From the NCBI RefSeq assembly GCF_900155605.1, contig NZ_LT707420.1, positions 398,290 through 462,289 on the forward strand: a stretch of 64,000 nt of DNA, written 5' to 3'. The notes beneath the pieces are model-generated. The model ran no database searches. It was not told the DNA's origin and saw nothing but the letters and a program-made list of their open reading frames with translations. This DNA is from Actinomyces marseillensis (GTDB lineage: Bacteria > Actinomycetota > Actinomycetes > Actinomycetales > Actinomycetaceae). Made by a program: the position numbers and the translations under genes. Of the stretch, positions 49,114 through 64,000 are shown in pieces; positions within the stretch are counted from its first letter, which is position 1, and each line of letters opens with the position of its first letter.

Positions 49114-50247
49114 TCAGATTCCGTAGCGGATCGGCATGAGCAGGTAGCGGAAATCGGTTGATTCTCCACCGTCTGCCTTCTCTTGGCCCGTGATGACCGC
49201 GGGCTTCGTGGGGTGGGTGAAACCGAAACGAACGAAGTCCGTATCCATCACCGACAGACCTTCGCTGAGGTACTGCGGGTTAAATGCCGTCGCGATGTCT
49301 TCACCCATGAGCTGCGCAGGAACAACTTCGGAAGCCTGAGCATTGTCACCTTGGCCGGCTTCGAGGACAAGCTGTCCATCGGAGAAGGAGAGTCGAACAC
49401 TGGTCTTGCGTTCGGCAACCAAAGACACGCGCTTGACTGCTTCGAGCAGAGTGTGGCGCTCAACAATGGCCTGAATTGTTGTGGTTTCGGGGAAAAGCCT
49501 GCGAACGGGCGGATAATCGCCATCCATGAGGGTCGAGGTCGTGCGTCGTCCACCGGCCTGGAAACCAATGAGCGAGGAGGCACCGGGCTGGGATTCCTGG
49601 GACAGACCGACGTCGACCTTTGCACCACTGGTCATTGACTTGGCAACGTCTTGGAGGATCCGCGCCTTCACCAATGCGGCCTCGGACATGTCGGAAACAG
49701 AATCCCAGTGAAGCTCACGCATGGCCAAGCGGTAGCGGTCGGTTGCCAAAAGCGTGATGTTGTCACCGTCGATTTCAACGCGAACTGCAGTGAGCAGGGG
49801 AAGAGTTTCATCGCGCGACGCAGCAATTGACACCTGAGCAACGGCCTGGGCAAAAACCTGCGAATCGACAGATCCGGCAACCTGGGGCTGTCCGGGAAGC
49901 AAGGGATATTCATCAATGGGCATGACAGCCAAGGTGAAGTGCGAAGAACCGCAGGAAAGTGAAACTTTTTGTCCGTCAACTTCGATGGTGACGGGCTTGT
50001 TGGGCAGTGACTTTGAAATATCGGCAAGAAGCCGACCCGAAACCAGGACTTCGCCTTCTTCGTCAACGGATGCAGGAATTCGTGAATTTCCCGAGACTTC
50101 GTAGTCAAAGGAGGACAGAGTCAGTTCTTGACCCTGGGCTGAAATACGCATTCCGGCAAGGATGGGGCTTGCAGGACGGGTAGGAAGTACACGCGCTGTC
50201 CATGAAACAGCTTCAGCAAGCACGTCGCGGGCGACGGTGAACTTCAT
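49114..50247 (-). CDS. dnaN: DNA polymerase III beta sliding clamp
   Basis: A 377-residue clamp made of three similar domains; typical segments are the N-terminal MKFTVARDVLAEAVSWTARV and the C-terminal LLMPIRYG, with ATDRYRLAMRE and FSDGQLVL between. It encircles DNA and tethers the replicase. AAGGAG lies 6 nt before the ATG. Confidence 0.96.
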   Translation of the reverse strand: MKFTVARDVLAEAVSWTARVLPTRPASPILAGMRISAQGQELTLSSFDYEVSGNSRIPASVDEEGEVLVSGRLLADISKSLPNKPVTIEVDGQKVSLSCGSSHFTLAVMPIDEYPLLPGQPQVAGSVDSQVFAQAVAQVSIAASRDETLPLLTAVRVEIDGDNITLLATDRYRLAMRELHWDSVSDMSEAALVKARILQDVAKSMTSGAKVDVGLSQESQPGASSLIGFQAGGRRTTSTLMDGDYPPVRRLFPETTTIQAIVERHTLLEAVKRVSLVAERKTSVRLSFSDGQLVLEAGQGDNAQASEVVPAQLMGEDIATAFNPQYLSEGLSVMDTDFVRFGFTHPTKPAVITGQEKADGGESTDFRYLLMPIRYGI

Positions 50248-50640
50248 GGATTCTCCTTGGAACTGAATAAAGAAATACCGGTTGTTAGTTTAGCTGGCTG
50301 TAGGCGTCAAGGAAACTGAAAAATTCGCTGCTGTGGAGTTCACCAGGGGGCTTGAGTGATGCGGGCGAATTTTTGTTATTTGTCTTGAACTTAGTTCGTC
50401 TTCGTCATCGGCTATGTGGATAGTGTGGATAAGTGGTTCTTTCCGCTTAATGACAAGAATTTCATCGTGGACGTAGATGTGTATCCGAGTGTGAACAAAC
50501 TACATCTTTTTGTGGAAGAAATTTTTGTCATTCTTGAAGTTCCACAGCTTCCCTTTTCCTGTACACATGTTCACGCTGCGATTTCACCACAGTTTCCACA
50601 GCTTCTGTGGATTGCACCGAAAATGGGAGTAATTCGCCAT
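50248..50640. other. oriC part 1 (dnaA-dnaN intergenic)
   Basis: A gene-free 393-bp AT-rich gap. DnaA-box-like sites: TGTGGATAG (50415-50423) directly abutting a perfect TGTGGATAA (50424-50432), plus GTTTCCACA (50592-50600) and TGTGGATTG (50606-50614). AT-rich stretches near 50360-50400 and 50500-50560 could unwind. This is the usual oriC position in Actinobacteria. No coding region was found in it. Confidence 0.8.
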
Positions 50641-52095
50641 TTAACCTAGTGTCGCTGACTCGCGCGCCGCCTGCTTGATGCGGTTCGTCAATTCGGTGAC
50701 GTAGTTAAAGGTCTCTCTCTTTTCTGCCATCAATCCGACGATTTTCTTATTAGCGTGCATGACAGTTGTATGGTCGCGTCCGCCAAATGCTGCGCCGATC
50801 TTGGGCAGGGACAAATCAGTGAGTTCTCGGCACAAGTACATCGCGATCTGACGTGCTTCGACGACGACATGTGAGCGATCCGAAGACGAAAGCTGATCGA
50901 TGGTGACCCCGAAGTAGGTCGCAGTCTGACTCATGATCAAGGTAGGTGTCACCTCGGTATCTTGAGGATCCGAAGCGAAGTCCTTAAGGAGCATTTCCGC
51001 CATCGATACGGTGACTGGTTCCTTTGAGAGGGATTCAAAGGCTGCGACGCGGACGAGGGCACCTTCAAGTTCGCGAATATTCGAAGAAATTCGTTGAGCA
51101 ATGTACTCCAAGACACGAGGATCCACCTCGATGTTTTCCGCACTCGCCTTCTTCTGCAAAATTGCGATACGCGTTTCAAGATCAGGCGGTAAGACATCGA
51201 CCAAGAGACCCGCAGCGAAGCGAGAACGAATGCGGTCTTCCAAATCGAGTTCACGAGGCGGAACATCCGAGGTCAGCACGATCTGCTTTCCCGCGTTATA
51301 GAGGGAATTGAAGGTGTGGAAAAACTCTTCAACCGTGCGTTCTTTGCCTTGAATGAACTGAATATCGTCGATCAGAAGCACATCGACTTCGCGGTATCGC
51401 CGCTGGAACTCTTCGATGCTCTCCTCACGAACGGAGTTAATGAAGTCGTTCGTAAATTCCTCTGAATTCACGTAGCGCACGCGCATCTGCGGGAAAAGCG
51501 AAAGCGTGTAGTGGCCGATGGCGTGAATGAGGTGGGTTTTTCCCAGACCGGAATCACCGTGAATAAAGAGGGGGTTGTAAGCGCGACCGGGAGTTTCCGA
51601 GACCGCAAAAGCTGCAGCATGGGCGAAGCGATTCGAGGGACCAATCACGAAAGTATCGAAAGTGTGCTTCGGATTCAGGTGGGTGCTAGCGGTGTCGATT
51701 GCTAGTTGCGGGCTACTCGACGGCGCTGCCTGAGCCGGGGCGGCTTGGTGTGGTGTGGTAGCGCTTGGTTGCACCTGGCCCTCGCTTCCCACTGACGAGG
51801 CAACTGGTGAGGGTTGCTCGACCGGTTCGGGTTCGGGTTCAAGAGAGGGGTCGATGGTGACCGCTAGACGAATACTGCGCCCAAGGATGTTGGTCAGAGA
51901 AGCAGTGAGATCAGTCGCGTCGTTGTTTTCGATCCACTTCTTTGTGAAATCGTTGGGAACAGCGATCAAGATCGTTCCATCAATGTCACCCAGGGGTTTT
52001 GCTGAGCGTAGGAAAGACAAGGTTGCAGGTCTCAATTGGTCTGAGATTTGAGCAAGTGCCTCAGACCATGCCTGAGTAAGGGCATCGATAGACAC
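50641..52095 (-). CDS. dnaA: chromosomal replication initiator DnaA
   Basis: A 484-residue initiator. Domain I (helical, SIDALTQAWSEALAQI) is followed by a Pro/Ala/Glu/Gln-rich linker, an AAA+ domain with Walker A GDSGLGKTHLIHAIG and Walker B VLLIDDIQF, and domain IV with the box-binding signature GGRDHTTVMHA. The GTG start at 52095 is chosen because CGGAGG lies 5 nt upstream; a longer frame to 52161 lacks a ribosome site. It diverges from rpmH across oriC. Confidence 0.96.
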   Translation of the reverse strand: MSIDALTQAWSEALAQISDQLRPATLSFLRSAKPLGDIDGTILIAVPNDFTKKWIENNDATDLTASLTNILGRSIRLAVTIDPSLEPEPEPVEQPSPVASSVGSEGQVQPSATTPHQAAPAQAAPSSSPQLAIDTASTHLNPKHTFDTFVIGPSNRFAHAAAFAVSETPGRAYNPLFIHGDSGLGKTHLIHAIGHYTLSLFPQMRVRYVNSEEFTNDFINSVREESIEEFQRRYREVDVLLIDDIQFIQGKERTVEEFFHTFNSLYNAGKQIVLTSDVPPRELDLEDRIRSRFAAGLLVDVLPPDLETRIAILQKKASAENIEVDPRVLEYIAQRISSNIRELEGALVRVAAFESLSKEPVTVSMAEMLLKDFASDPQDTEVTPTLIMSQTATYFGVTIDQLSSSDRSHVVVEARQIAMYLCRELTDLSLPKIGAAFGGRDHTTVMHANKKIVGLMAEKRETFNYVTELTNRIKQAARESATLG

Positions 52096-52385
52096 AAGAA
52101 CCTCCGGAAACTGACGTGAGATAGGACACGAGAAATGATATCTGTCGAAATCATCTTCCACCGATAATTCTAATATGATGCCACGTTTTCCACAGCTGGG
52201 GATATACCTGTGGATATTTAATCCCCAAATGACATTTGTGTAGTTACAAGACCTCCCCGTTGAGTGACAAAGAAAATGTCTCTATCCACAGGTTTGTGGA
52301 TAACTTGCAATGTGGATAACTTACCCCTTATGTATCCACACCTCCTTCCACAGGTGTGGATGGCCTGAATTAAGTGGCTCTTTCG
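52096..52385. other. oriC part 2 (dnaA-rpmH intergenic) with DnaA box cluster
   Basis: DnaA boxes: TGTGGATAT (52209), CTATCCACA (52282-52290), perfect TGTGGATAA at 52295-52303 and 52311-52319, GTATCCACA (52332-52340), TGTGGATGG (52355-52363), with further TTTCCACA-type matches. Four sites fall within 80 bp on alternating strands, fitting the initiator assembly region. No gene in this stretch. Confidence 0.85.
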
Positions 52386-52414
52386 TTGACGGAACGGCGA
52401 AAAACCCTTAGGCT
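52386..52414 (+). promoter_or_regulatory. rpmH operon promoter
   Basis: TTGACG (52386-52391), a 17-bp spacer and TAGGCT (52409-52414) make a strong sigma-A promoter, about 60 bp upstream of the rpmH start and just beside the DnaA box cluster. Confidence 0.8.
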
Positions 52415-52477
52415 GTTGGTTCGTATGTGTTTGTCGTTGAGATAAACACCGTCCATGACCAATTCGAGGAGATATCA

Positions 52478-52618
52478 GTGACCACCAAGCGGACTTATCA
52501 GCCGAACAACCGTCGTCGTTCCAAGACGCACGGCTTCCGCCTGCGTATGAGCACCCGCGCTGGCCGCGCGATTCTGGCTGCGCGTCGTCGCAAGGGCCGC
52601 GCCCGCCTCTCCGCCTGA
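52478..52618 (+). CDS. rpmH: 50S ribosomal protein L34
   Basis: A 46-residue basic protein: [20 protein letters not shown] and RKGRARLSA are the canonical L34 sequence. The GTG at 52478 follows GAGGAG at 7-8 nt; an earlier ATG would add an unrelated tail. First gene of the rpmH-rnpA-yidD-yidC-jag-rsmG series. Confidence 0.96.
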
Positions 52619-52629
52619 GCTTTCGCGAG

Positions 52630-52998
52630 GTGTTGCCCCGCTCGAACCGCATGGTGAATCCAGCGGACTTCCGCCTCGCAATCCGAAGCGGATCGCGCGC
52701 GGGTCAGCAAAGGCTCATTGTGCATTGTCGAACCGACGAGGAAAGTGATTCACGCCTCGTCGGTTTCGTCGTACCTAAGAGCCAGATCAAACGAGCAGTT
52801 GGACGCAACCGAGTCAAGCGTCAATTGCGCCATCTCATGGCCGATCGCCTCAGTGCACAGCCTGCCGGTGCCCGCGTCGTCGTCCGAGTAAAAGCCGATG
52901 CATTGGGTGTCACTTCGGAGCAATTGGGTGAAGAATTAGATCAGGTTTTGGCCAGGGCATGGAAGAAATGGGATCGATCTCAGGAGGGACGCGCATGA
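52630..52998 (+). CDS. rnpA: ribonuclease P protein component
   Basis: A 122-residue basic protein with the RnpA signature [14 protein letters not shown]. It binds the catalytic RNase P RNA to mature tRNA 5' ends. The GTG at 52630 gives the family-typical start VLPRSNRMV. Its stop overlaps the yidD ATG. Confidence 0.95.
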
Positions 52999-53402
52999 GC
53001 TCTCCTTTCGCGTATATCGCAATCATCCCCGTGCGCCTCTACCAGCGTTTCATTTCCCCACTTTTCGCGCCGCGTTGCCGCTACTACCCCACCTGCTCAA
53101 GCTACGCCCTCGGCGCTTTGCGCACCCACGGCCTCGTCAAGGGAACACTATTAGCCATCTGGCGAATCCTTCGCTGTAACCCCTGGAGCCTCGGCGGGGT
53201 CGATGAAGTTCCCGCACGCGGCAAGTGGACCAGCGAAGCCTGGACGCCACCCCAGGACTGGGCCGGCTACGACGATCCATGGGCACAAACCCCCATGGGC
53301 ATGGATCGCACCGATGACAAGACATCGGTCGACACTCTCGAAGACTTCTCGGCGAAGGCCGAGCATCACACGGACGCAGTGAGCGTCCCCCGCGCATCAT
53401 AA
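52995..53402 (+). CDS. yidD: membrane protein insertion efficiency factor YidD
   Basis: A 135-residue protein with the conserved YidD core [26 protein letters not shown] and [15 protein letters not shown]. The Cys-rich motif and the amphipathic helix assist YidC insertion. The ATG overlaps the rnpA stop. The C-terminal ~60 residues are an acidic, less conserved extension. Confidence 0.92.
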
Positions 53403-53413
53403 GGAGATCTCCT

Positions 53414-54721
53414 GTGGATTCGATTCTCTATCCCTTTGCAGTAGCGGTCGCCTGGCTCTGGGTCAGGATTCACGACCTGCTGCTGCTCGTTGGAATGAAC
53501 AGCGGCGCAGGATTCACATGGGTCCTGTCCATCGTTCTGCTGACCATTTTGGTGCGCGTGCTGATCATCCCGCTGTACCTCAAGCAGCTCAAGAGCATGC
53601 GAGGCACGTCGATTGTTCAGCCTCAGATGCAGAAGATTCAGGCCAAGTACAAGGGCAAGACGGATATGGCCTCCCGCCAGCGCATGCAGCAGGAGATTTC
53701 CGAGCTCAATAAGAAGTACGGTGTGAACCCCTTCGCTTCGTGCTTGCCAATGCTCGTTCAGTTGCCGGTTCTCTTCGCGATGTACCGTGCGATCTACGCC
53801 ATCCACGCCCTGGCAGAAAGCAGCTACCAGGTCGGTTCGCGTCACGTGGACTCCCTGGGTCCGATCACTCAGGCCGTCGCCTCGGAAATCGACTCCTCGC
53901 AGGTTTTCGGCGTCCCGCTGTCCCACACGATCCGCGACTCTTCCTTTGCCTCGCTTCCGACGCTGATCTTCGGTGTCTTCATCGTCATCATGGTCGCGAC
54001 GCAGTTCTTGACCATCCGTCTGACGATGACGAAGAACATGCCGCAGAACCAGGATCCGAACAACCCCATGGTTCGTTCGCAGCGCATGATGATGTACGTC
54101 ATGCCCTTCATGTTCATCTTCTCGGGCCTGTTCTTCCAGATGGGTGTCGTCATCTACACGACGACCGCGGGCATTTGGGGCTACCTGCAGATGCTGTGGG
54201 TCATCAAGAACATGCCGAACCCGAACTCCGCTGCTTACAAGGAGCTCTTGGCCAAGCGTCAGAGTGCCTACCAGACGTGGGCTCGCCCCTTCTTTGCCGA
54301 TTACGACGAGAAGCGTCGCGTCTTGGCCGATGGTTCCGATGAACTCAAGGCTTTGAACTCGGCCACTTTGAAGGAATTGCGCGCTCGCGCAAAGCGCCAG
54401 AAGGTCGCCTCTGATTTCCCCGAGGTCATGAGCGAGGGAGAGATCGTTTCGATCTACCGCAATCTTTCGATGCAGGAATGGACGACCCTTCCCGACGAGG
54501 TGTGGATGCGCGGAGTCAAGGTTGCGACCGAACGTGCGGCGGATCGTCGCGAGGCCGCGGCCAAGCGTGAGGAAGCACAACGTCAGGCACGTACCCGTTC
54601 GCCTCGTGCACAGGCGGCCTCCGAGAATCCGAACTCCTCGGTTGATGCTGACGAACTCGAGCGCAAGCGCCAGGAGCGCCGCAAGGCTCGTCGCGCCGCT
54701 GCAAAGAAGAAGAAGCGCTGA
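53414..54721 (+). CDS. yidC: membrane protein insertase YidC
   Basis: A 435-residue Oxa1/YidC-family insertase. Hydrophobic helices are near residues 5-27, 33-53, ~108-128, ~180-200 and ~225-250, with typical LSIVLLTILVRVLIIPLYL and NPFASCLPMLVQLPVLFAMY segments. It inserts and folds inner-membrane proteins, alone or with Sec. AAGGAG precedes the GTG start. A basic tail (ERRKARRAAAKKKKR) probably contacts ribosomes. Confidence 0.95.
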   Translation: MDSILYPFAVAVAWLWVRIHDLLLLVGMNSGAGFTWVLSIVLLTILVRVLIIPLYLKQLKSMRGTSIVQPQMQKIQAKYKGKTDMASRQRMQQEISELNKKYGVNPFASCLPMLVQLPVLFAMYRAIYAIHALAESSYQVGSRHVDSLGPITQAVASEIDSSQVFGVPLSHTIRDSSFASLPTLIFGVFIVIMVATQFLTIRLTMTKNMPQNQDPNNPMVRSQRMMMYVMPFMFIFSGLFFQMGVVIYTTTAGIWGYLQMLWVIKNMPNPNSAAYKELLAKRQSAYQTWARPFFADYDEKRRVLADGSDELKALNSATLKELRARAKRQKVASDFPEVMSEGEIVSIYRNLSMQEWTTLPDEVWMRGVKVATERAADRREAAAKREEAQRQARTRSPRAQAASENPNSSVDADELERKRQERRKARRAAAKKKKR

Positions 54722-54783
54722 GCGCGCCACCACAGACCACTCGATGCCCATGGCATCAAACATCCCCTGATGGAGGAAATACT

Positions 54784-55305
54784 ATGAGCGAAGATACGTC
54801 CAGCGAGCTGTCGCGCCTGGAGGAAGAAGGCGAACTCGCAGCCGACTACCTGGAAGAGCTTCTCGATATCGCTGATCTTGACGGTGATATTGAAATCGAT
54901 GTCGAAAATGGCCGCGCACTGGTTGAGATCATTTCCGAGGACCCCTCTGCTCTTGACCACCTCGTTGGCGAGGACGGTGAAGTCGTTGATGCGCTCCAAG
55001 AACTGACTCGACTTGCCGTCCAGACCGAAACCGGCGAGCGTTCGCGCCTCATGCTTGACATTGCAGGCTTCCGTGCCGATCGTAAGGCGGATCTGCAGGA
55101 TCTGACTCACGAGGCCATCGCGCGCCTGCGTGCGACCGGTGAGCCGCAGAAGCTTGAACCGATGAACCCGTTTGAGCGCAAGGTTTGCCACGACGTTGTT
55201 GCCTCTGAGGGTCTGCGCAGCGAATCTGAAGGCGTTGAGCCCCGTCGCCGTGTCGTGATTCTTCCCGCCGATGAGTCCGCCATTGATGAGGCCGAGGAGG
55301 CCTGA
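54784..55305 (+). CDS. jag: Jag/KhpB RNA-binding protein
   Basis: A 173-residue protein: KH-II-like domain (GDIEIDVENGRALVEIISED and IGED-like GEDGEVVDALQELTRLA) then an R3H domain (PMNPFERKVCHDVVASEGLRSESEG). Acidic at both ends. It binds RNA and is linked to cell division and envelope synthesis. Follows yidC, as in many bacteria. Confidence 0.9.
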   Translation: MSEDTSSELSRLEEEGELAADYLEELLDIADLDGDIEIDVENGRALVEIISEDPSALDHLVGEDGEVVDALQELTRLAVQTETGERSRLMLDIAGFRADRKADLQDLTHEAIARLRATGEPQKLEPMNPFERKVCHDVVASEGLRSESEGVEPRRRVVILPADESAIDEAEEA

Positions 55306-55971
55306 GTGGACACCCTCGCGGGCGGCTCGGGTGAGCTAGAGATTGAACTTGAGGTTCCCGGACCTGAAGTTCGCGAACTTTTCGGCTTGGCATATCCAGA
55401 TATCGCCGAGTTTGCCAACATGTTGGTTGAAGAGGGAGAGCTTCGCGGACTGATTGGTCCGCGAGAGCTTCCCCGGCTCTGGTCGCGCCACCTCGTGAAC
55501 TCTGCTGCGGTTCTTGATTTCCTACCCAAGAAGGGACAGGTTCTCGACGTCGGATCGGGAGCCGGATTCCCGGGTATTGTCATCGCTGTATGCAGGCCGA
55601 ACCTTGATGTTCACCTTGCGGAGCCCATGGCTCGGCGCTGCGAGTGGCTTGCCGATGTTGTTGATGCACTTGGTTTGGATAACGTCACTATTCATCAAGC
55701 ACGTGCTGAAGAACTCCGAGGTAAGGGCAAGGCAGACGTCGTCACTTCTCGAGCGCTAGCGAATATGACCAAGCTTGTCCGTATGACCTCTAAGTTAATT
55801 GCTCCCGGTGGCTCACTGGTTGCGCTTAAAGGTCGTCGTGCTGGTGGAGAGGTCGAGGCTGCGCAAGTTGAGCTCAAGCGTCACCATTTGGCGGCCTCGA
55901 TTCACGAGGTGCCTTCCGTGATGGAGGATGACTCGACCTTCGTTGTCGTCGCAAAGAGAGTTCGCTCGTAG
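55306..55971 (+). CDS. rsmG: 16S rRNA (guanine527-N7)-methyltransferase
   Basis: A 221-residue Rossmann methyltransferase with the SAM motif LDVGSGAGFPGIVIA, acidic strand VHLAEPMARRCEWL and VVTSRALANMTKLV. RsmG forms m7G527 in 16S rRNA. It starts immediately after jag (GTG at 55306), with GAGGAGG in the jag end as its ribosome site. Confidence 0.94.
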   Translation: MDTLAGGSGELEIELEVPGPEVRELFGLAYPDIAEFANMLVEEGELRGLIGPRELPRLWSRHLVNSAAVLDFLPKKGQVLDVGSGAGFPGIVIAVCRPNLDVHLAEPMARRCEWLADVVDALGLDNVTIHQARAEELRGKGKADVVTSRALANMTKLVRMTSKLIAPGGSLVALKGRRAGGEVEAAQVELKRHHLAASIHEVPSVMEDDSTFVVVAKRVRS

Positions 55972-56070
55972 CTTGCCGGGATAGCTCTGGTAGCGCGTGT
56001 CCTCAGCTATCAGGGTGTGTTCTTCTTGCCTACACTTGTGTCATTGACGTGCGAGAAAGGCTCAACTTCT

Positions 56071-56940
56071 ATGGCCGGTCAGACTCCGCTTTCGGATCAG
56101 ATCACCCAAAACTTCCAAGATCGTGCCTTCTTGGAGAAGGCAAAGTTTGGTGTGCCTTCTTCCACTCGCGTGATCGCCGTCGCGAATCAGAAGGGCGGGG
56201 TTGGCAAGACCACTTCGGTTGTCAACCTTGCTGCGGCATGTGCTTTGGGTGGGTTGAAGGTTGTCGTGATTGACGCCGACGCTCAGGGTAATGCCTCGAG
56301 TGCGCTGGGTATCGCGCATACCCCCGGTACTCCTTCGACCTACGAGGTGATCACTGGTCAGGCTTCGATTGGTGAGGTCCTCCAGGCCTGCCCTGATTTA
56401 GACAATCTCTGGGTTTGTCCGGCGACGATTGACTTGTCTGGAGCCGAGATTGAGCTTGTTGATCTTGCGCGGCGCGAGTTTCGCCTTGCCGACGCAGTTT
56501 CGCATTTCGTCGAGGCCTATCAGCAAATTGATTTAGTTTTCATCGATTGCCCGCCTTCCTTGGGTTTGGTCACTTTGAATGTCATGGTCGCAGCTGATGA
56601 GGTTTTGATTCCGATTCAGACCGAGTACTACGCGCTTGAGGGCCTGAGCCAGCTATGGTCGACGATTGATCGCATCAGTGGTGACCTGAACCCGAAACTG
56701 CATGTTTCAACTATGTTGTTGACCATGGCCGATAAGCGAACGAAACTTTCTGAAGAGGTTGAGTCGGAAGTTCGTTCACACTTCCCAACCCAAACACTCC
56801 AGACAGTGATTCCTCGTTCGGTTCGCGTCTCTGAAGCTCCGAGCTATGGGCAGAGCGTCATTACCTACGATCCAAATGGCGCGGGCAGCCTCGCATACCG
56901 GAAAGCTGCACTCGAGTTGAGTCTGCGTCTGGCCAAGTAG
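56071..56940 (+). CDS. parA: chromosome partitioning ATPase ParA
   Basis: A 289-residue Walker-type ATPase with deviant Walker A KGGVGKTT, Walker B FIDCPPSLGLVTLN and switch DADAQGNASSALG. ParA binds DNA in its ATP form and pulls ParB-parS complexes apart. ATG 56071 is preceded by GAAAGG and is taken as the start; an earlier in-frame ATG lacks a ribosome site. Confidence 0.94.
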   Translation: MAGQTPLSDQITQNFQDRAFLEKAKFGVPSSTRVIAVANQKGGVGKTTSVVNLAAACALGGLKVVVIDADAQGNASSALGIAHTPGTPSTYEVITGQASIGEVLQACPDLDNLWVCPATIDLSGAEIELVDLARREFRLADAVSHFVEAYQQIDLVFIDCPPSLGLVTLNVMVAADEVLIPIQTEYYALEGLSQLWSTIDRISGDLNPKLHVSTMLLTMADKRTKLSEEVESEVRSHFPTQTLQTVIPRSVRVSEAPSYGQSVITYDPNGAGSLAYRKAALELSLRLAK

Positions 56941-57048
56941 GTCTATTTCGTTTTCTGGAAGGAACTTTTTCGGGATTTAGTGGTGTTGCGAATCTCAGGA
57001 GAAGGACGCTCTGAAAATCGTTTTTTGATTGTTCAGTCCACATTTTCG

Positions 57049-57064
57049 TGTTTCACGTGAAACA
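57049..57064. other. parS site 1 (parA-parB gap)
   Basis: TGTTTCACGTGAAACA, a perfect 16-bp parS palindrome, the ParB binding/CTP-loading site, 36 bp upstream of the parB start. Confidence 0.97.
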
Positions 57065-57099
57065 ATGGATTCATCATCACGAGTACGCGAGATTGGTAA

Positions 57100-58374
57100 A
57101 TGAGCATGGCGGAGCACTCCGAATCACAGCATAAGGCTCAACGGCGAGCAGGTTTGGGCAGAGGGCTCGGTGCCCTTATCCCCCAGGCACAGAGTGAGAA
57201 TCCTGAGGAGGTAGCAAAGCGTCCTCTTGACGTTCTCTTCCCCGGTCAGCGCTCAAGCACGACGGCACGCGGTGGTTCAGCGCGCGAACTGCTCGAACCG
57301 AAGACTAGGAAGTCGTTGAGTAGCCGTAGTAGTGCTGCTTCAAAGCCCGTCAGGACGCGTAAAGCTCAGGAGTCGAAGGCGCAGGGAGGCTCGGAAGGCG
57401 GTGAAAAGGGGGAAGCGATTTCCACCTCGGTATCGGCCGCGGCCGCGTCGTCCAAGGAAAGCCGCGACGATCAAAACGATGTTTCACGTGAAACATCAGA
57501 ACTTCTGAACGTTCCTGGTGCGACCTTCGCAGAGATTCCTTTGGAGCAGATTGTTCCCAATACCCGTCAACCGCGCCAGGTGTTTGATGAAGATGATCTG
57601 AACGAACTCGCTGCCTCCATTCGCGAGGTCGGTGTTCTGCAGCCAATTGTTGTCCGTAGGATCGCGCTCGATCAGGAACCTTCTGAAACTCTGAAGGAAC
57701 TCCTGAAGGAGAAGCCAGAGGCACGCTACGAACTCATCATGGGTGAGCGCCGACTGCGAGCAAGCGAATTGGCGGGGCTGTCGAGTATTCCAGCGATTGT
57801 ACGTCATACCGAGGATGAAGATCTTCTGCGTGACGCCTTGCTTGAAAACCTTCATCGTGCGCAGCTCAATCCCCTTGAAGAAGCGTTTGCATATCAGCAG
57901 CTCATGGCAGATTTCGGGGCGACGCAGGAAGAACTCTCGAAGAAGATTGCGCGTTCACGGCCGCAGATTGCGAACACACTTCGACTTCTTAAGCTACCTG
58001 CATCCGTACAGAAGAAGGTATCAGCGCAGGTTCTGTCGGCAGGCCACGCACGTGCACTTCTCGGGCTGAGTACGCCGGAAGAAATGGAGATCCTCGCCAA
58101 CCGCATCATTGCAGAAGGACTTTCTGTACGTACGACAGAAGAGCTCGTTCGCTTAGGTTCAATCCAACGCCCGACGCATCACTCGGTGAAGCGTATGAAC
58201 GTTGCATCTCCGCTTGGTGAACATATGAGCCAAGTCCTCGCAGACGCTTGGGACACCCGCGTGACGATCTCTGAGGGTAAGCGCAAGGGTAAGATCATCA
58301 TCGAATTCGCGGGTAGTGAGGATCTTCAACGTCTTGCGGATCTTCTCCTTCCCAAAGCGAACCGCGAAGACTAA
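57100..58374 (+). CDS. parB: chromosome partitioning protein ParB
   Basis: A 424-residue CTPase. The N-terminal LGRGLGALIP is the ParA-stimulating peptide; a long charged linker (residues ~25-145) precedes the CTP-binding fold with GERRLRASELAG and NLHRAQLNPLEEA, an HTH (LSKKIARSRPQIANTLRLL) and a C-terminal dimer domain. ParB loads at parS and slides. A perfect parS lies inside the coding sequence (57480-57495), where it codes for VSRET. Confidence 0.95.
   Translation: MSMAEHSESQHKAQRRAGLGRGLGALIPQAQSENPEEVAKRPLDVLFPGQRSSTTARGGSARELLEPKTRKSLSSRSSAASKPVRTRKAQESKAQGGSEGGEKGEAISTSVSAAAASSKESRDDQNDVSRETSELLNVPGATFAEIPLEQIVPNTRQPRQVFDEDDLNELAASIREVGVLQPIVVRRIALDQEPSETLKELLKEKPEARYELIMGERRLRASELAGLSSIPAIVRHTEDEDLLRDALLENLHRAQLNPLEEAFAYQQLMADFGATQEELSKKIARSRPQIANTLRLLKLPASVQKKVSAQVLSAGHARALLGLSTPEEMEILANRIIAEGLSVRTTEELVRLGSIQRPTHHSVKRMNVASPLGEHMSQVLADAWDTRVTISEGKRKGKIIIEFAGSEDLQRLADLLLPKANRED
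57480..57495. other. parS site 2 (inside parB)
   Basis: A perfect TGTTTCACGTGAAACA in the parB linker region, in phase with codons GTT-TCA-CGT-GAA-ACA. Intragenic parS in parB is known in other bacteria. Confidence 0.97.
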
Positions 58375-58508
58375 TTCTGAGCCGTTTGGTGCACCTGCTG
58401 CATTTGATGGGATGCGCGCTTGGTAAGCATTCACTTGAGCTGGAGGAAAATGTTGCAGCCAAAGATGAGGCTTCGGCGAGGTAGGTAGCAAGACCCGAAA
58501 GAGAAAGA

Positions 58509-58552
58509 ACATGTGTGGGTGATGTTTCACGTGAAACATCACCCACACATGT
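58509..58552. other. parS site 3 inside a 44-bp perfect palindrome
   Basis: The parS core is at 58523-58538 and perfect symmetry extends to 58509-58552 (outer arms ACATGTGTGGGTGATG / complement). It is 135 bp after parB and 66 bp before the HAD gene, so as RNA it would form a 22-bp hairpin and could also terminate transcription of the parAB unit. The 58375-58508 stretch has no gene. Confidence 0.95.
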
Positions 58553-58617
58553 ATGAGAAGGCGGTTTGTTGTCGGGGCAGTAATGCGAGACAATAGAACC
58601 GGAGGTTCACAGCACTT

Positions 58618-59250
58618 ATGGATAGACCACAACCTGATCTCATCTACTTCGACATTGGTGGAGTTCTGGTCACACAGCGGCCTGATCCTGGGCAATTTGC
58701 CTCGATCCTGAACCTAGGGAACGAGCCTCATGTGCTGACACTCGTCGACCATGCGATCTGGGCCCATCGAGACTCATATGACGAAGGTATGACAGACAAG
58801 GAATTCTGGAACGCTGTCAGCGGTGACTGCGGGCTACCGGAGCCAAGCGAATCCCAACTCGATGAACTTGTTACTGCTGACTCTCGCCGAATGTACGGCA
58901 TTGATGAGTGTGCCGCGTACCTTCTTGAAGAACTGAAGTCTAAGGGCTACATCATGGGGGTCCTGACGAATATGCCAGCGCCTCACGCGTCAATCGTGAT
59001 GGAAAGTCCGTGGGCACATAAGTACTTCAATGGACCAATGATCTTCTCATCCTATGTTGGAGTCGCAAAACCGAATCGTGGAATCTATCGCGAGGCGATT
59101 GAAGCCGCGCGGCTCGAGGCAGAGAAAATTTTGTTCATCGACGATCGCGAACAAAATACGAAGGCGGCGGAGTACTTGGGTATTTCGACCTTGAGCTGGG
59201 CAAACGCGCATGAAACCAGGGAAGAGCTCATTCAGCTCGGGCTTCTCTAA
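58618..59250 (+). CDS. HAD-IA family hydrolase (YihX-like)
   Basis: A 210-residue HAD protein. Motif I is YFDIGGVLV (Asp nucleophile; the second Asp of DxD is Gly, as in YihX-type DxG proteins), motif II LTNMPAPH, motif III Lys in GVAKPNRG, motif IV ILFIDDREQNTKAAEYLG. Likely a small-molecule phosphatase. It is followed by a 17-bp terminator stem. Confidence 0.82.
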   Translation: MDRPQPDLIYFDIGGVLVTQRPDPGQFASILNLGNEPHVLTLVDHAIWAHRDSYDEGMTDKEFWNAVSGDCGLPEPSESQLDELVTADSRRMYGIDECAAYLLEELKSKGYIMGVLTNMPAPHASIVMESPWAHKYFNGPMIFSSYVGVAKPNRGIYREAIEAARLEAEKILFIDDREQNTKAAEYLGISTLSWANAHETREELIQLGLL

Positions 59251-59258
59251 AACATGAA

Positions 59259-59297
59259 AGTTGGGGGCGGGCACCTTCATGGTGCCCGCCCCCAACT
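59259..59297. terminator. bidirectional terminator between HAD and ddl
   Basis: A 17-bp perfect GC-rich stem (59259-59275 with 59281-59297) around TTCAT, 8 bp past the HAD stop and 30 bp from the convergent ddl stop. It serves both genes. Confidence 0.85.
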
Positions 59298-59327
59298 ATG
59301 CGAAACAATGAGCGCTAAGCGGCTAGG

Positions 59328-60278
59328 TCAATCCCGGCTTGCAACGTAGCGAACGATAGCCGCGCAGATCTCGTCAAAGGAACCTGTGGCCTCGGCAGCC
59401 TGCGGGAAAAGCGAAGTATCGGTCATTCCGGGCGAAACATTCGCGTCAATGAACCAAAAGCTCCCGTTATCGTCAACAATAAAGTCAATACGTGACAGGT
59501 CACGAAGACCAAGCAACTCGTGGATCTGGATAGCGGCAGCCTGGACATCCGTCATCTCATCGTTGCTCAGGCGGGCGGGTACAAAGTATTCGCTCTCATC
59601 AGTTGTGTAGCGAGCCTCGTAATCGTAGTGACCGTCGTCGGTGGAGACCTCGACGGGTGGCAGGGCAATAGGCCCTTCCTCTAGATCGACAACCGAAACA
59701 GCGATATCGCGGCCTTCAACGAAACGTTCGAGCATGACATGCTCCTCGTAGGAGAAAGCATCAACCATCGCAGAACGAAGATCACTTGAATCCTGAGCAC
59801 GGGACATTCCAAGAGCCGAACCACCCGAAGAAGGTTTGACGACAAGCGGGAAAGTCAAAGAGGAGTTGATCATCCCAAGAACATTGTGCGCGCCGAGCTG
59901 GCGGAACAAAAGCTGGGGAAGGGCAATCCACCCGGGGGTATCAAGTCCGGCTGCGCCAACGAGCGCCTTAGCAGTGGGCTTGTTGGAAGCCAGCATCGCC
60001 TGCGCAGGTGTCGACCCCACGTAAGGAACTCCCACACCCTCAAGAAGGGATTGGAGAGAACCATCCTCGCCCAAAGATCCGTGAACAAGCGGCCACACAA
60101 CATCGGGGCCGAAAGCGGAAATCTCAGCGGGAAGATTCTGATCAAAATCGACAACCTTAGCGTCGAAACCCTGGTTGATCAGGGAGTTTGCGACGCGACG
60201 TCCGGAGCGAACAGAAACATCACGCTCATGGGTGAGGCCGCCAGCGATAATAAGGACCTTTAATGAATCAGTGGACAT
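59328..60278 (-). CDS. ddl: D-alanine--D-alanine ligase
   Basis: A 316-residue ATP-grasp ligase. Typical segments: LVHGSLGEDGSLQSLLEGVG (Gly-rich N-domain loop), FPLVVKPSSGGSALGM (ATP loop), SRIDFIVDDNG and NVSPGMTDTSLFPQAA. It joins two D-Ala for peptidoglycan. It follows the aminotransferase gene by 18 bp in one operon. Confidence 0.9.
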   Translation of the reverse strand: MSTDSLKVLIIAGGLTHERDVSVRSGRRVANSLINQGFDAKVVDFDQNLPAEISAFGPDVVWPLVHGSLGEDGSLQSLLEGVGVPYVGSTPAQAMLASNKPTAKALVGAAGLDTPGWIALPQLLFRQLGAHNVLGMINSSLTFPLVVKPSSGGSALGMSRAQDSSDLRSAMVDAFSYEEHVMLERFVEGRDIAVSVVDLEEGPIALPPVEVSTDDGHYDYEARYTTDESEYFVPARLSNDEMTDVQAAAIQIHELLGLRDLSRIDFIVDDNGSFWFIDANVSPGMTDTSLFPQAAEATGSFDEICAAIVRYVASRD

Positions 60279-60296
60279 GACGATTTCTCCTCGGAA

Positions 60297-61616
60297 TTAG
60301 TCTTCGGTATGAACGGAACCATCATGACGGTTCGTTAAAAATTCAGCTTCTTCTTCGGGTGCAACGCCGAACATATCGACGAGCTGCTTCTCAGCATTAA
60401 CAACGCCAGCAAGGCGACGAATACCTTCACGGATACGATCGGGTTCGGGATAGCAGAAGGACAAGCGCATGTGATCAGCACCCCGGCCGTCGTAGTAGAA
60501 AGCGGTACCGGAAACGTAGGCGACCTGTGCCTTTACAGCGCGAGGAAGCATGCTGCGCGCATTCAAACCCTCGGGCAGGGTCACCCATGTGTAGAAACCG
60601 CCATCCGGAGTCGTCCACGAGCACTCGGGCATGTACTCCGCCAAAGCATCCAACATGGCCTTGCAACGTTCGGCGTACATTGCGCGATAGACCTTGACTT
60701 GGCTGTACCAGTCATAACCGGCCAGGTAGCTCGAGAGGAACATCTGACCGAACATACCTGGGGACAAAATTGCGGCCTCAGAAGCCAGTATCAGCTTCGC
60801 GCGAATGGCGTGGGGAGCAAGGGCCCAACCGATACGCATACCGGGCGCAAACATCTTCGAAACCGAACCCAAGTAGACAACGCCCTCGGGAGACCACGAA
60901 CGAAGTGCGGGAAGCGGATCGGAATCAAAACCAAGCAAGCCGTACGGGTTATCTTCCAAAATCAACACGTGTTCACGCATGCAGATTTCAGCGATCAGGG
61001 GGCGACGCTCCAAAGAAAGCGTGACGCCCGCAGGATTGTGGAAGTTTGGGATCGTGTAGAGGAACTTAATGGCGCGACCGGCGGACTTCAGGCGACGGAT
61101 CGTCTCTTCTAAGGCCTCGGGAATGATGCCGTTGTCATCCATATCAACGTGAATGACATCGGCTTGGCGGGCACGGAAACAGCCAAGGGCGCCAACGTAG
61201 GAAGGAGACTCGGCCAAAACAACGTCACCGGAATCGATAAAGAGCTCGGCCATCAAGTCGAGTGCCTGTTGCGAACCCGTCGTAATGACGACGTCGTCAG
61301 GGTCAGCGCCGATGATGCCGTCATAGGTCATGACGTTGACAAGTTGCTCACGCAAGGGTTCCCAGCCCTGGCCCGAACCGTATTGCAGTGCCTGGGCGCC
61401 GGAGGAAAGGATCAGCTCCTTCGCGGTTTCGGCCAAGCTCTCCAGAGGAAGATCCTTCAGGTTCGGCATACCGCCCGCAAGTGAAACAACCTCGGGCCGC
61501 GAGACGACAGAAAAAAGCGCGCGAATCTCAGAAGCTCGCAGGTTGTGAGCTCGATCGGCGTAGGCATCAAACCACGGGTCGAGTCGAGTTCCCTGCAACT
61601 GAGAATCCTGAGTCAT
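60297..61616 (-). CDS. PLP-dependent aminotransferase, class I/II
   Basis: A 439-residue fold-type I aminotransferase with PLP Lys in YLGSVSKMFAPGMRIGW, phosphate motif VVITTGSQQALDLMA, and LILEDNPYGLLGF. It resembles the family near actinobacterial parAB loci and LysN/AspT-like enzymes. It starts the operon with ddl. The substrate (2-aminoadipate-like or aspartate-like) cannot be fixed from sequence. Confidence 0.88.
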   Translation of the reverse strand: MTQDSQLQGTRLDPWFDAYADRAHNLRASEIRALFSVVSRPEVVSLAGGMPNLKDLPLESLAETAKELILSSGAQALQYGSGQGWEPLREQLVNVMTYDGIIGADPDDVVITTGSQQALDLMAELFIDSGDVVLAESPSYVGALGCFRARQADVIHVDMDDNGIIPEALEETIRRLKSAGRAIKFLYTIPNFHNPAGVTLSLERRPLIAEICMREHVLILEDNPYGLLGFDSDPLPALRSWSPEGVVYLGSVSKMFAPGMRIGWALAPHAIRAKLILASEAAILSPGMFGQMFLSSYLAGYDWYSQVKVYRAMYAERCKAMLDALAEYMPECSWTTPDGGFYTWVTLPEGLNARSMLPRAVKAQVAYVSGTAFYYDGRGADHMRLSFCYPEPDRIREGIRRLAGVVNAEKQLVDMFGVAPEEEAEFLTNRHDGSVHTED

Positions 61617-61715
61617 AATCGCGAACCTTTCTGAGTCACTATGTCAAAAGACACACGTCCAAGTGTGCCACTATTCGCCCACTATTGGATACCGTCAACG
61701 AGGCCGTGGATACCT

Positions 61716-62420
61716 TTAATCCATGCCGTGCGGATCCGCTTCCTCAACGGAGTAGATGCCGGGAAGATCGGAGATCGTTGCAATCAGTGCAGGGAGTGCA
61801 ACGCGGTCGGCGGTCGTCGTTTCGATGTACGCATGGCCACGCTTGCCTTCGGTATCGCTGCGAACCTGGGAAATACGCCACTTCGACTCCGTCATCACGT
61901 TCATCACGCGACGCATCACCCCTTGACCGGAGTCGAAGACGACTTCAAGCACAACGGTATTTGGCCGGCGCGAAGAATGCGGACCGATGTGGCGGGCAAG
62001 CGGCGTAAGGGCAAAAACAATGATGAAGTGCATGAGCGTCACTGCAACGCCCGCGACCCACAATCCCGCGCCACACGCCATACCAATTCCAGCAGTTTCC
62101 CACACCGTGGCGGCAGTAGTCAGACCGCGCACCGCACCTGAACGCGTCAAAATGATGCCGGCACCGAGGAAGCCAATACCGGAAACAATCTGTGCGGCGA
62201 CACGCGAGGGATCTACGCGGACCAAATCTGCGGCGAGCACATCGTCGAAGCCATACTTGGAGACCACCATGAGGAGAGCAGAGGTCATGCCAACGATCGC
62301 ATCCGTGCGTAGACCCGCGCTCTTTCCACGCGCCTGACGTTCCAGACCGATCAGAGAAGACAGGAGTAGGGCGAGGAGAATCCCGGCAATCTGCTCAAAA
62401 TGTTGGCTTAGGGTCAGCAT
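61716..62420 (-). CDS. MgtC/SapB family membrane protein
   Basis: A 234-residue protein with four or five N-terminal hydrophobic helices, the MgtC motifs LIGLERQARGKSAGLRT and SGIGFLGAGIILTRSGAVRGLTTAATVW, and a soluble ACT-like C-terminal domain (VVLEVVFDSGQGVMRRV). The family supports growth under magnesium limitation or acid. It diverges from the ABC transporter. Confidence 0.9.
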   Translation of the reverse strand: MLTLSQHFEQIAGILLALLLSSLIGLERQARGKSAGLRTDAIVGMTSALLMVVSKYGFDDVLAADLVRVDPSRVAAQIVSGIGFLGAGIILTRSGAVRGLTTAATVWETAGIGMACGAGLWVAGVAVTLMHFIIVFALTPLARHIGPHSSRRPNTVVLEVVFDSGQGVMRRVMNVMTESKWRISQVRSDTEGKRGHAYIETTTADRVALPALIATISDLPGIYSVEEADPHGMD

Positions 62421-62550
62421 GGCCTTCCTCGGTGATAATAACGGCGTGCACGTAATTGTTTCCTAGGGTACATCCCCATTACCACAACTAGGGGCAAATC
62501 AGGGCAATACCCAATAGTGAACACGGGTAGCTCACGAGCACACTAAAACT

Positions 62551-63291
62551 ATGACTACTCCACTGCAGCAGGGCGCAAGCGCGCCAGACGCACCCAACGC
62601 ATCCACGGCCTCGGGAATGATCGTTCGCGGGCTGACAAAAACCTACCAGCGAGGCGGAAACACGGTTTACGCACTCGCGGGAGTAAGCCTCTCGATCCCT
62701 CAGGGGAGCCAACTGGCCATCATGGGACCCTCAGGATGCGGTAAAACGACCTTGCTGCACTGCCTCGCGGGGGTTCTTCGCCCGACTTCGGGAAGCATCA
62801 TGCTCGACGGTACCGAATTGGCGGCGACGAGTGAGGGGGCGATCTCGCAACTGCGGCTGCGCAATTTTGGTTTTGTCTTCCAAGACGGTCAGCTCCTCCC
62901 CGAGCTGCCATGCCAAGAGAATGTTGCGATGCCGCTCATGCTGGCGGGAGTGTCGCGCAAGAACGCGGTCTCTCAAGCGCAGCAGATCCTGATGAATCTG
63001 GGGCTGGATGGTGCAGGCCCCTACCGTCCGGGGCAACTTTCCGGCGGGCAAGCACAACGCGTCGCTATTGGGCGCGCGCTCATCACTCACCCCAAAGTCG
63101 TCTTTGCTGACGAACCAACGGGCGCGCTGGACCAGGGGACGGGGGCTGAAGTCATGAGCGTCCTGACAGGAGCGTGCTCGGCGACGGGTGCCAGTCTGAT
63201 CTTGGTCACCCACGATCCTTCAGTTGCGGCGCGCCTCCCGCATGAAATCCACATGCGCGACGGCTTGATCGATCAGCAGGTGTCTCGATGA
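62551..63291 (+). CDS. ABC transporter ATP-binding protein (MacB/LolD type)
   Basis: A 246-residue nucleotide-binding subunit: Walker A GPSGCGKTTLLHCLAG, Q-loop FVFQDGQLLPEL, signature LSGGQAQRVAIGRAL, Walker B KVVFADEPTGALD, and His VTHDP. The MacB/LolD group exports peptides or lipoproteins. It overlaps the permease gene by 4 nt. CACACT ends 6 nt before the ATG with no Shine-Dalgarno, a leaderless pattern. Confidence 0.92.
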   Translation: MTTPLQQGASAPDAPNASTASGMIVRGLTKTYQRGGNTVYALAGVSLSIPQGSQLAIMGPSGCGKTTLLHCLAGVLRPTSGSIMLDGTELAATSEGAISQLRLRNFGFVFQDGQLLPELPCQENVAMPLMLAGVSRKNAVSQAQQILMNLGLDGAGPYRPGQLSGGQAQRVAIGRALITHPKVVFADEPTGALDQGTGAEVMSVLTGACSATGASLILVTHDPSVAARLPHEIHMRDGLIDQQVSR

Positions 63292-64000
63292 GCGCAACAC
63301 TGACCGCAGCCAAGGCAACGTTGCGTTCGCGTGACCGCGCGACAACAATCCTGACGGTTCTTGCTTTCGCTTTCCCGCATGCGATTTTGCTGAGCGTCAC
63401 AGGAGGGGTGTGCGCATTTGTCTCTCGCGCAAGTAACCCACCGGCCGGTTTCAGCGATGTCGCAACCTTCTACGTGGTGATGGCGTGTTTTGCTGCAACG
63501 CTGATGACTGTCCCGATCCTCTCGATGGGTGGTGCGGCAGCGCGCCTGGGGCTGAGTCGCAGAGCGCGTGACCTTGCTGTACTGAGACTCATCGGCTTAA
63601 AACCGGGGCAAACTCGCCTTGCTTGCGTCATCGAGACCGCGGTTTATGCGCTGGTCGGTGTTGTTGCGGGTTCGCTGCTGTACGCAGCGTGCTTACCCGG
63701 ATGGAGTTTCGTTTCTTTCCAGGGCGTAGCCTTGAGCGTCGGCGAGATGTGGGTCGGTCCCCTGATCCTCATTGCCGAGGCCGCGCTGATGATGGTCCTT
63801 GCAGCTGCCTCCGCGATGCTTGCGATGCGTCGCGTGGTCGTCACGCCTCTAGGAGTGAGCCGAAGAAGCGATGTGTCGAAGGTGTCTCCCGTGGGGCTGG
63901 GCATCATGGTCGCCCTCATGGTCGTCTGGCTCTTTATTGGTGGAACCATCTGGAATGCAGGAATTGCTATCGGCTTGTCGGTGCTATTGGGATTCATGGG
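63288..64000 (+). CDS. FtsX-like ABC permease, N-terminal part
   Basis: The partner permease of the ABC pair, cut by the window end. ATG 63288 overlaps the ATPase stop (ATGA). The visible 237 residues hold hydrophobic segments near 20-46, 62-80, 115-135, 150-178 and 210-230 and the FtsX-type coupling stretch RRARDLAVLRLIGLKPGQT. No stop occurs before the end. It belongs to the same exporter as the ATPase. Confidence 0.88.
   Translation, partial: MSATLTAAKATLRSRDRATTILTVLAFAFPHAILLSVTGGVCAFVSRASNPPAGFSDVATFYVVMACFAATLMTVPILSMGGAAARLGLSRRARDLAVLRLIGLKPGQTRLACVIETAVYALVGVVAGSLLYAACLPGWSFVSFQGVALSVGEMWVGPLILIAEAALMMVLAAASAMLAMRRVVVTPLGVSRRSDVSKVSPVGLGIMVALMVVWLFIGGTIWNAGIAIGLSVLLGFM

What the first reader, a model, noticed from the sequence alone, without database searches (positions are those of the whole stretch)
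58509..58552. parS embedded in a 44-bp perfect palindrome
The 16-bp parS is extended to 22-bp perfect arms, after the parB gene. The RNA would form a long hairpin, so one site may combine segregation loading with transcription termination, or the extended arms may alter ParB affinity.
Basis: partly seen in the sequence, partly recalled or inferred. Interest (0 to 1): 0.5.

Follow-up and report, generated by a model that had tools for sequence, protein, structure and literature searches.

The report
Centromere site inside terminator-like hairpin
Just after the parB gene, a chromosome-segregation site (parS) forms the tip of a 44-base perfect palindrome that RNA would fold into a strong hairpin; similar but differently spelled parS hairpins recur at gene ends in related bacteria, which suggests that one short DNA stretch serves both chromosome segregation and the ending of a transcript.

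Summary
In detail: 58509-58552 is a perfect 44-bp palindrome, the longest in the window, starting 134 nt after parB and centred on an exact parS. The two other exact parS sites have arms of 8 and 10. Among 743 parS-core sites in 150 Actinomycetaceae parB regions, perfect arms of 18 or more occur at 16 of 67 sites within 400 nt 3' of parB, against 5 of 676 elsewhere (0 of 149 deep in coding sequence). Arm sequences are mostly unrelated between clades while pairing is kept, partly by two-sided changes; the trait needs at least 11 changes on a ParB tree. Outside the family some copies look like textbook terminators: a 46-bp parS palindrome with A5/T5 ends between convergent parB and a thioredoxin-like gene, and parS stems with T-runs directly after jag. 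So parS fused with a 3'-end hairpin is well supported as an architecture. That this copy terminates parB transcription is inferred: it has no U-tract on the parB strand (only on the other), a 30-locus hold-out was not significant alone, and the apparent exclusion of ordinary terminators is absent in tandem gaps like this one and unsupported by phylogenetic pairing. ParB affinity is not testable here.

The parts
58509..58552 (.). 44-bp perfect palindrome; as RNA a 20-bp stem with a 4-nt loop
58523..58538 (.). exact 16-bp parS at the centre of the palindrome (hairpin apex)
58497..58508 (-). U-rich tail after the stem on the minus strand only (TCTTTCTCTTTC); the plus-strand tail is ATGAGAAGGCGG
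57100..58374 (+). parB (424 aa)
56017..56940 (+). parA
57049..57064 (.). exact parS in the parA-parB gap, arm 8 (not extended)
57480..57495 (.). exact parS inside the parB coding sequence (reads VSRET), arm 10
58578..58611 (+). block directly upstream of the HAD gene that still aligns with an 81% relative after the rest of the gap has diverged; candidate promoter/ribosome-binding region (inferred; the sigma-70 consensus scan found no promoter in 55000-60500)
58618..59250 (+). HAD-family hydrolase gene downstream of the hairpin
59259..59297 (.). ordinary 17-bp hairpin at the HAD/ddl convergent junction, no parS; for comparison

Best explanation
A composite element: the ParB-loading site parS (DNA level) is also the apex of a hairpin that ends, or protects the 3' end of, the parB transcript (RNA level). 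Only the 16-bp centre is fixed by ParB recognition; the arms are free in sequence and held together by pairing. The likely benefit is economy and insulation: RNA polymerase leaving parB is released at the ParB loading site and does not run on into the HAD gene or, in relatives, into the oppositely oriented ddl. Shown: palindrome, recurrence, location bias, pairing kept through sequence change, T-run versions in other families. Inferred: that ParB binds this copy, that parB RNA ends here, and the insulation benefit.
For: Location: arm 18 or more at 16 of 67 sites within 400 nt 3' of parB versus 0/149 coding (>150 nt inside), 0/32 near ORF starts, 2/207 in rsmG-parA-parB operon gaps, 1/107 other convergent, 1/93 other tandem, 1/88 divergent/edge. 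Within loci: of 46 loci with sites both there and elsewhere, the long arm is only 3' of parB in 15, only elsewhere in 0, both in 1. Recurrence: at least 11 changes of the trait (arm 16 or more 3' of parB, 18 of 150 loci) on a ParB tree; mostly unrelated arm sequences. Pairing: the 81% relatives keep a 16-nt arm with T:A changed to C:G on both sides; L127/L128 gap 69% identical yet the hairpin identical; L162/L193 gap 53% yet inner arms kept and outer arms differ on both sides. Stems that pair through bulges beside or near parS, L227 and L240. Outside the family: in 40 hand-picked loci of other families the 4 of 128 sites with arms of 16 or more start 8-56 nt after a stop codon: L277 8 nt after yidC, L298 56 nt after rsmG, L299 17 nt after jag and followed by T6, L286 25 nt after parB with A4/T4 ends. 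A T5-directed scan of 394 genomes added L315, a 46-bp palindrome with A5/T5 ends 46 nt after parB and facing a minus-strand gene, and L323, arm 21, 16 nt after jag and followed by T7. In 8 sibling loci parS lies next to an ordinary hairpin at the HAD/ddl junction.
Against: No U-tract on the parB strand here (1 T in 8 nt), nor generally in the family's parS hairpins (mean 2.1 T/8 in 20; ordinary hairpins there 2.46; background 1.67). A family scan for parS followed by T5 (24 of 213 genomes, 33 matches) gave no G+C-rich parS stem with a U-run among the 20 loci taken; one of them, an arm-16 site with T5, lies inside parB on the antisense strand, so such shapes also arise where they cannot end parB. 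[quoted passage not shown] The 30 lowest-scoring of the 150 loci alone show no significant bias (arm 18 or more: 1/23 3' of parB, 0/48 coding, 2/49 other 3' ends). Exclusion of ordinary hairpins (1/16 vs 42/84 in convergent gaps, p 0.0007; other thresholds up to 0.03 there and 0.06 over all gaps) is absent in tandem gaps such as this one (p 0.56-0.80) and has no support in phylogenetically independent pairs (6 pairs). The window's own gap also holds a weaker ordinary 11-pair hairpin 7 nt after parB. G-rich 5' arms (13 of 15 here; ordinary hairpins 29:13) are also seen in extended parS arms elsewhere (22:8), so they do not single out gene ends. Folding energy of the 60 nt around parS separates classes less well than arm length: -25 kcal/mol or lower in 25/67 here but 21/93 in other tandem gaps. 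In one search, 19 of 35 loci of the genus have neither kind of hairpin between parB and HAD. No transcript data.
Confidence: 0.57

Rival explanations
1. Neutral growth: parS is a fixed palindromic seed at which template switching during replication turns flanks into longer palindromes; such palindromes persist wherever no coding or leader function removes them, so 3'-gap copies are longest without any function in transcription.
For: Arms of 10 or more exceed the re-paired-flank null in all seven contexts, coding sequence included (58 of 197 vs 27; arm 14 or more 7 of 197 vs 0.10). Non-parS zero-loop palindromes with arms of 14 or more are rare (4 in the 150 regions, N runs left out), so growth would be tied to parS.
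Against: Other untranslated convergent gaps should then be as rich: 1/107 against 16/67 3' of parB. Arm lengths are bimodal in that class (18 at 16 or more, none at 14-15, the rest 13 or less). T-runs at or after the stem directly behind stop codons in L315, L323, L299, L286 and pairing with bulges in L227, L240 are not expected.
Confidence: 0.2
2. The symmetric flanks improve or tune ParB binding or CTP-clamp loading at this site; the RNA hairpin is a by-product.
For: A mild symmetric extension (arm 10 or more, often GA-parS-TC) is commoner than the re-paired null in all seven contexts.
Against: Long arms have mostly unrelated sequences between clades, are absent from sister parS sites in the same genomes in 15 of 16 loci, and sit at gene ends; L227 and L240 keep the stem although the DNA symmetry around parS is broken.
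Confidence: 0.1
3. The hairpin is a terminator for transcription on the minus strand (antisense to parB), where the U-rich tail lies, and protects parB from antisense transcription.
For: The U-rich tail is only on the minus strand (TCTTTCTCTT); 13 of the 18 family loci with arms of 16 or more 3' of parB have a convergent ddl as the next gene.
Against: In this genome the next gene is on the plus strand and an ordinary hairpin already stands between HAD and ddl (59259-59297, also T-rich on minus); no minus-strand promoter evidence.
Confidence: 0.13

Closest known systems
Chromosomal parS sites of ParABS (ParB/Spo0J)
   Same: Exact consensus, beside parAB, several copies; the review PMC7022226 (passages) gives TGTTNCACGTGAAACA.
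   Different: Described as a 16-bp site; the review's main text has no occurrence of 'terminat' and the 12 passages seen do not mention a longer palindrome or hairpin.
DNA uptake sequences in inverted pairs that double as Rho-independent terminators (Neisseria)
   Same: A DNA-level recognition motif re-used as the stem of terminators (PMC2397512, passages).
   Different: There closely spaced inverted copies of the uptake motif make the stem; here a single palindromic motif is the apex and variable arms make the stem, at few sites near parAB.
parS overlapping transcription signals in mycobacteria
   Same: A putative parS overlaps the -10 element of a gidB promoter in M. bovis BCG (PMC2346475, passages): segregation site shared with a transcription signal.
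   Different: Start signal, not end signal; no extended palindrome described in the passages seen.
Centromeres downstream of the partition genes in plasmids (P1 parS, F sopC)
   Same: Centromere placed after the partition genes (stated in PMC2346475, passage).
   Different: Different site architecture (recalled); no terminator fusion known to me.

Membership tests
Chromosomal parS site | 16-bp TGTTNCACGTGAAACA | tested here: met
Chromosomal parS site | Clustered near parAB | tested here: met
   three exact copies within 1.5 kb around parB; oriC/dnaA itself not located
Chromosomal parS site | Bound by ParB in the cell | not testable with these tools
   no ChIP data
Intrinsic (Rho-independent) terminator | Stable G+C-rich hairpin just 3' of a transcription unit | tested here: inconclusive
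   20-bp stem, -42.8 kcal/mol for the 91-nt stretch, 134 nt after the parB stop; but only 9 of 20 pairs are G-C
Intrinsic (Rho-independent) terminator | U-tract after the stem on the transcribed (parB) strand | tested here: not met
   plus tail ATGAGAAGGCGG; present only on the minus strand. Hence not filed as a canonical intrinsic terminator of parB
Intrinsic (Rho-independent) terminator | Transcript 3' end at the hairpin | not testable with these tools
   no RNA data
parS-hairpin composite (defined here) | parS-centred arms of 16 or more in an untranslated gap after a gene | tested here: met
parS-hairpin composite (defined here) | Pairing kept while arm sequence changes | tested here: met
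   one two-sided change in the window's clade, more in another clade
Inverted-DUS type terminator | Two inverted copies of the recognition motif form the stem | tested here: not met
   one palindromic parS at the apex; arms are unrelated to parS

The most novel reading that the evidence does not exclude
Centromere-terminator fusion is a recurrent, repeatedly evolved building block of actinobacterial origin regions: parS is recruited into transcript-end hairpins so that RNA polymerase is cleared at the ParB loading point, and ParB occupancy at this parS may in turn set how much of parB's own transcript ends there (a feedback between segregation complex and parB mRNA).
Probability: 0.3. Interest if true: 0.75.

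Novelty: new variant of a known kind. Interest (0 to 1): 0.55.

Why it matters
Transcription through a ParB-loaded region should disturb the segregation complex (inference); a terminator built around the loading site would be a simple solution, readable from sequence, and would make the cross-talk of transcription and chromosome segregation testable by changing arms without touching the 16-bp parS. It also warns that parS sites cannot always be treated as DNA-only elements when parS deletions are interpreted.

Tried and rejected
Rfam scan of 50000-64000: nothing at gathering thresholds. Sigma-70 promoter scan of 55000-60500: none found. The first gene calling placed two long-arm sites inside an ORF that overlaps ddl on the other strand; calls were redone with known genes fixed first, so the classes replace those. 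Hold-out, the 30 lowest-scoring of the 150 loci: no significant location bias (classes of that stage). Phylogenetically independent pairs for exclusion of ordinary terminators: no support, low power. Within-locus longest arm 3' of parB versus elsewhere, all lengths: 22 longer, 20 shorter, 4 ties, p 0.05; only the long-arm contrast is clear. The reversed-pattern control is zero because it destroys parS, so it says nothing. Other families: 40 loci that I picked by hand from those listed (spread over families, not at random); 128 sites in 32 of them; 1 of 10 sites within 400 nt 3' of parB has a long arm, so outside the family parB ends are not special, and 3 further arms of 16 or more follow yidC, rsmG and jag. 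Literature searches for parS with terminator, palindrome or stem-loop. Only listings were seen, and those were cut (15 of 75, 15 of 90, 12 of 1,306); passages were read in PMC7022226, PMC2346475, PMC5521831, PMC2397512 and PMC10937400. No listed title describes a parS-terminator. Most subscription papers are not held.

Full report
What is there. The window lies in an actinobacterial genome; its parB matches Actinomyces/Schaalia records best. Around the site the order is jag, rsmG, parA, parB, a HAD hydrolase (all plus), then ddl and an aminotransferase (minus) (jag and the aminotransferase named by recall). The palindrome 58509-58552 is exact and is the longest inverted repeat listed in the window. 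Its centre is an exact parS; the assembly has two other exact copies, in the parA-parB gap (arm 8) and within parB (arm 10). Only the one after parB is extended far. Its RNA folds far better than shuffles on both strands (z about -7); the other two sites do not.

Near relatives. The 91%-ParB relative has an identical 243-nt gap, so it says nothing about constraint. Two relatives at 81% ParB identity keep the element 70-71 nt after parB with arm 16; the inner arm reads GTGGGCGA instead of GTGGGTGA and the other side changed to match, while the outer six pairs are not kept. Between those two relatives the gap is 69% identical but the hairpin is identical; a block before the HAD gene is also nearly identical and can be aligned with the window, which I read as the HAD gene's own promoter or ribosome-binding region (inferred; the sigma-70 scan found nothing). 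Another member of the genus (L137, a contig of the same length as the named record L018) has an arm of 12 at the same place. By the criterion, of 35 loci of the genus 5 have a parS hairpin between parB and HAD, 11 another hairpin and 19 neither; in eight sibling loci parS lies next to an ordinary hairpin at the HAD/ddl junction instead.

Family-wide test. I took 150 parB regions, all those listed in order of ParB score (203 of 213 genomes had a match there; the list was cut), and classed all 743 GTTTCACGTGAAAC sites by context. Perfect arms of 18 or more: 16 of 67 within 400 nt 3' of parB; 0 of 149 in coding sequence more than 150 nt inside; 0 of 32 near ORF starts; 2 of 207 in rsmG-parA-parB gaps; 1 of 107 in other convergent gaps; 1 of 93 in other tandem gaps; 1 of 88 divergent or at an edge. 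Fisher p values for this threshold are 0.001 or lower against each class, but sites in related genomes are not independent. On a ParB tree of the 150 loci the trait (arm 16 or more 3' of parB; 18 loci) needs at least 11 changes, and the arms are mostly unrelated in sequence between clades, so it arose or was lost many times. A within-genome contrast: 15 loci have the long arm only 3' of parB, none only elsewhere, one both. Against this, the 30 lowest-scoring loci alone show no significant bias (1/23 versus 0/48 in coding sequence and 2/49 at other 3' ends), and energy of folding separates the classes less well than arm length (25/67 at -25 kcal/mol or lower here, 21/93 in other tandem gaps).

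Is it a terminator? For: position, pairing kept under sequence change, and stems that pair through bulges (L227, L240). In convergent gaps an ordinary hairpin of 13 or more pairs is present in 1 of 16 loci with a parS hairpin and 42 of 84 without (p 0.0007; other thresholds up to 0.03, all gaps up to 0.06), but tandem gaps, the window's own kind, show nothing (p 0.56-0.80) and independent pairs on the tree do not support it. G-rich 5' arms, 13 of 15, agree with ordinary parB-end hairpins (29:13) but extended parS arms elsewhere are G-rich too (22:8), coding ones not (9:6). The strongest evidence comes from other families. In 40 hand-picked loci, 4 of 128 parS sites have arms of 16 or more and all four start within 8-56 nt after a stop codon: yidC in L277, rsmG in L298, jag in L299 (followed by T6), parB in L286 (A4/T4 ends). 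A scan that asked for T5 behind parS (11 matches in 9 of 394 genomes; arms of 12 or more in L315/L324, which are one palindrome, L321 and L323) added L315, a 46-bp parS palindrome with A5 and T5 ends between parB and a minus-strand thioredoxin-like gene (name recalled from the sequence), and L323, 16 nt after jag and followed by T7. Against: in the window's family the parS hairpins lack U-tracts, as do the ordinary hairpins there, and this copy has one only on the minus strand; in the family scan an arm-16 site with T5 lies inside parB on the antisense strand. I therefore call it a 3'-end hairpin of probable terminator or RNA-end function, not a canonical intrinsic terminator.

Rivals. Template-switch growth of palindromes from a palindromic seed explains why even coding parS sites have longer arms than chance, but not the difference between parB ends and other untranslated gaps, the bimodal arm lengths or the T-runs. 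Improved ParB binding explains neither location nor arm diversity; the mild extension seen in all contexts could be its share. A minus-strand terminator remains possible for this copy.

Known or new. In the listings seen of the searches made (three of them cut) no title describes a parS that is part of a terminator, and a ParB review (passages) has no occurrence of 'terminat'. The nearest precedent in logic is the inverted DNA uptake sequences that act as terminators in Neisseria (PMC2397512, passages); in mycobacteria a parS overlaps a promoter element (PMC2346475, passages). I rate it a new variant of a known kind: known parts, a fusion that I did not find described.

Contexts outside the family were measured, controls and results against the reading were added (tandem gaps, G-richness elsewhere, folding energy, the antisense site inside parB, the weak 11-pair hairpin in the window's own gap). 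Confidence in the best explanation went from 0.58 to 0.57 and in the minus-strand rival from 0.12 to 0.13 for these reasons.

Noticed in passing
57480-57495: A parS is written inside the parB coding sequence (VSRET); an exact parS lies 883-898 nt before the parB stop in 19 of the 23 named Actinomyces/Schaalia-like records examined (L010-L031, L066).
   Followed up: partly
L129-L133, L135, L136, L138: parS lies next to an ordinary hairpin at the HAD/ddl junction (for example TGTGGGCCCGGGAGG...CCTCCCGGGCCCACA), whose stem also varies on both sides (L129, L133): parS beside, not inside, a terminator-like hairpin. Hairpins of 12 or more pairs within 75 nt: 19 of 174 sites in the 3'-of-parB and other convergent classes, 6 of 569 in the rest.
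   Followed up: partly
L011, L013, L015 (records): Records titled Trueperella pyogenes, Xylanimonas cellulosilytica and Sanguibacter keddieii carry parB regions that match Actinomyces/Schaalia (63-77% ParB identity); genomes with contigs of the same lengths are classed in the window's own genus, so the titles look mislabelled.
   Followed up: no
L234:5493 (plus-oriented): The longest parS palindrome met: arm 29 (58 bp), 3' of parB and facing ddl.
   Followed up: partly
L205:5707 (plus-oriented): A 50-bp zero-loop palindrome without parS 21 nt after parB (arm 25), so long perfect palindromes at this junction need not contain parS.
   Followed up: no
G000:C2:581810-581825: A parS-like site with one mismatch, about 125 kb from parB, in the window's assembly.
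   Followed up: no
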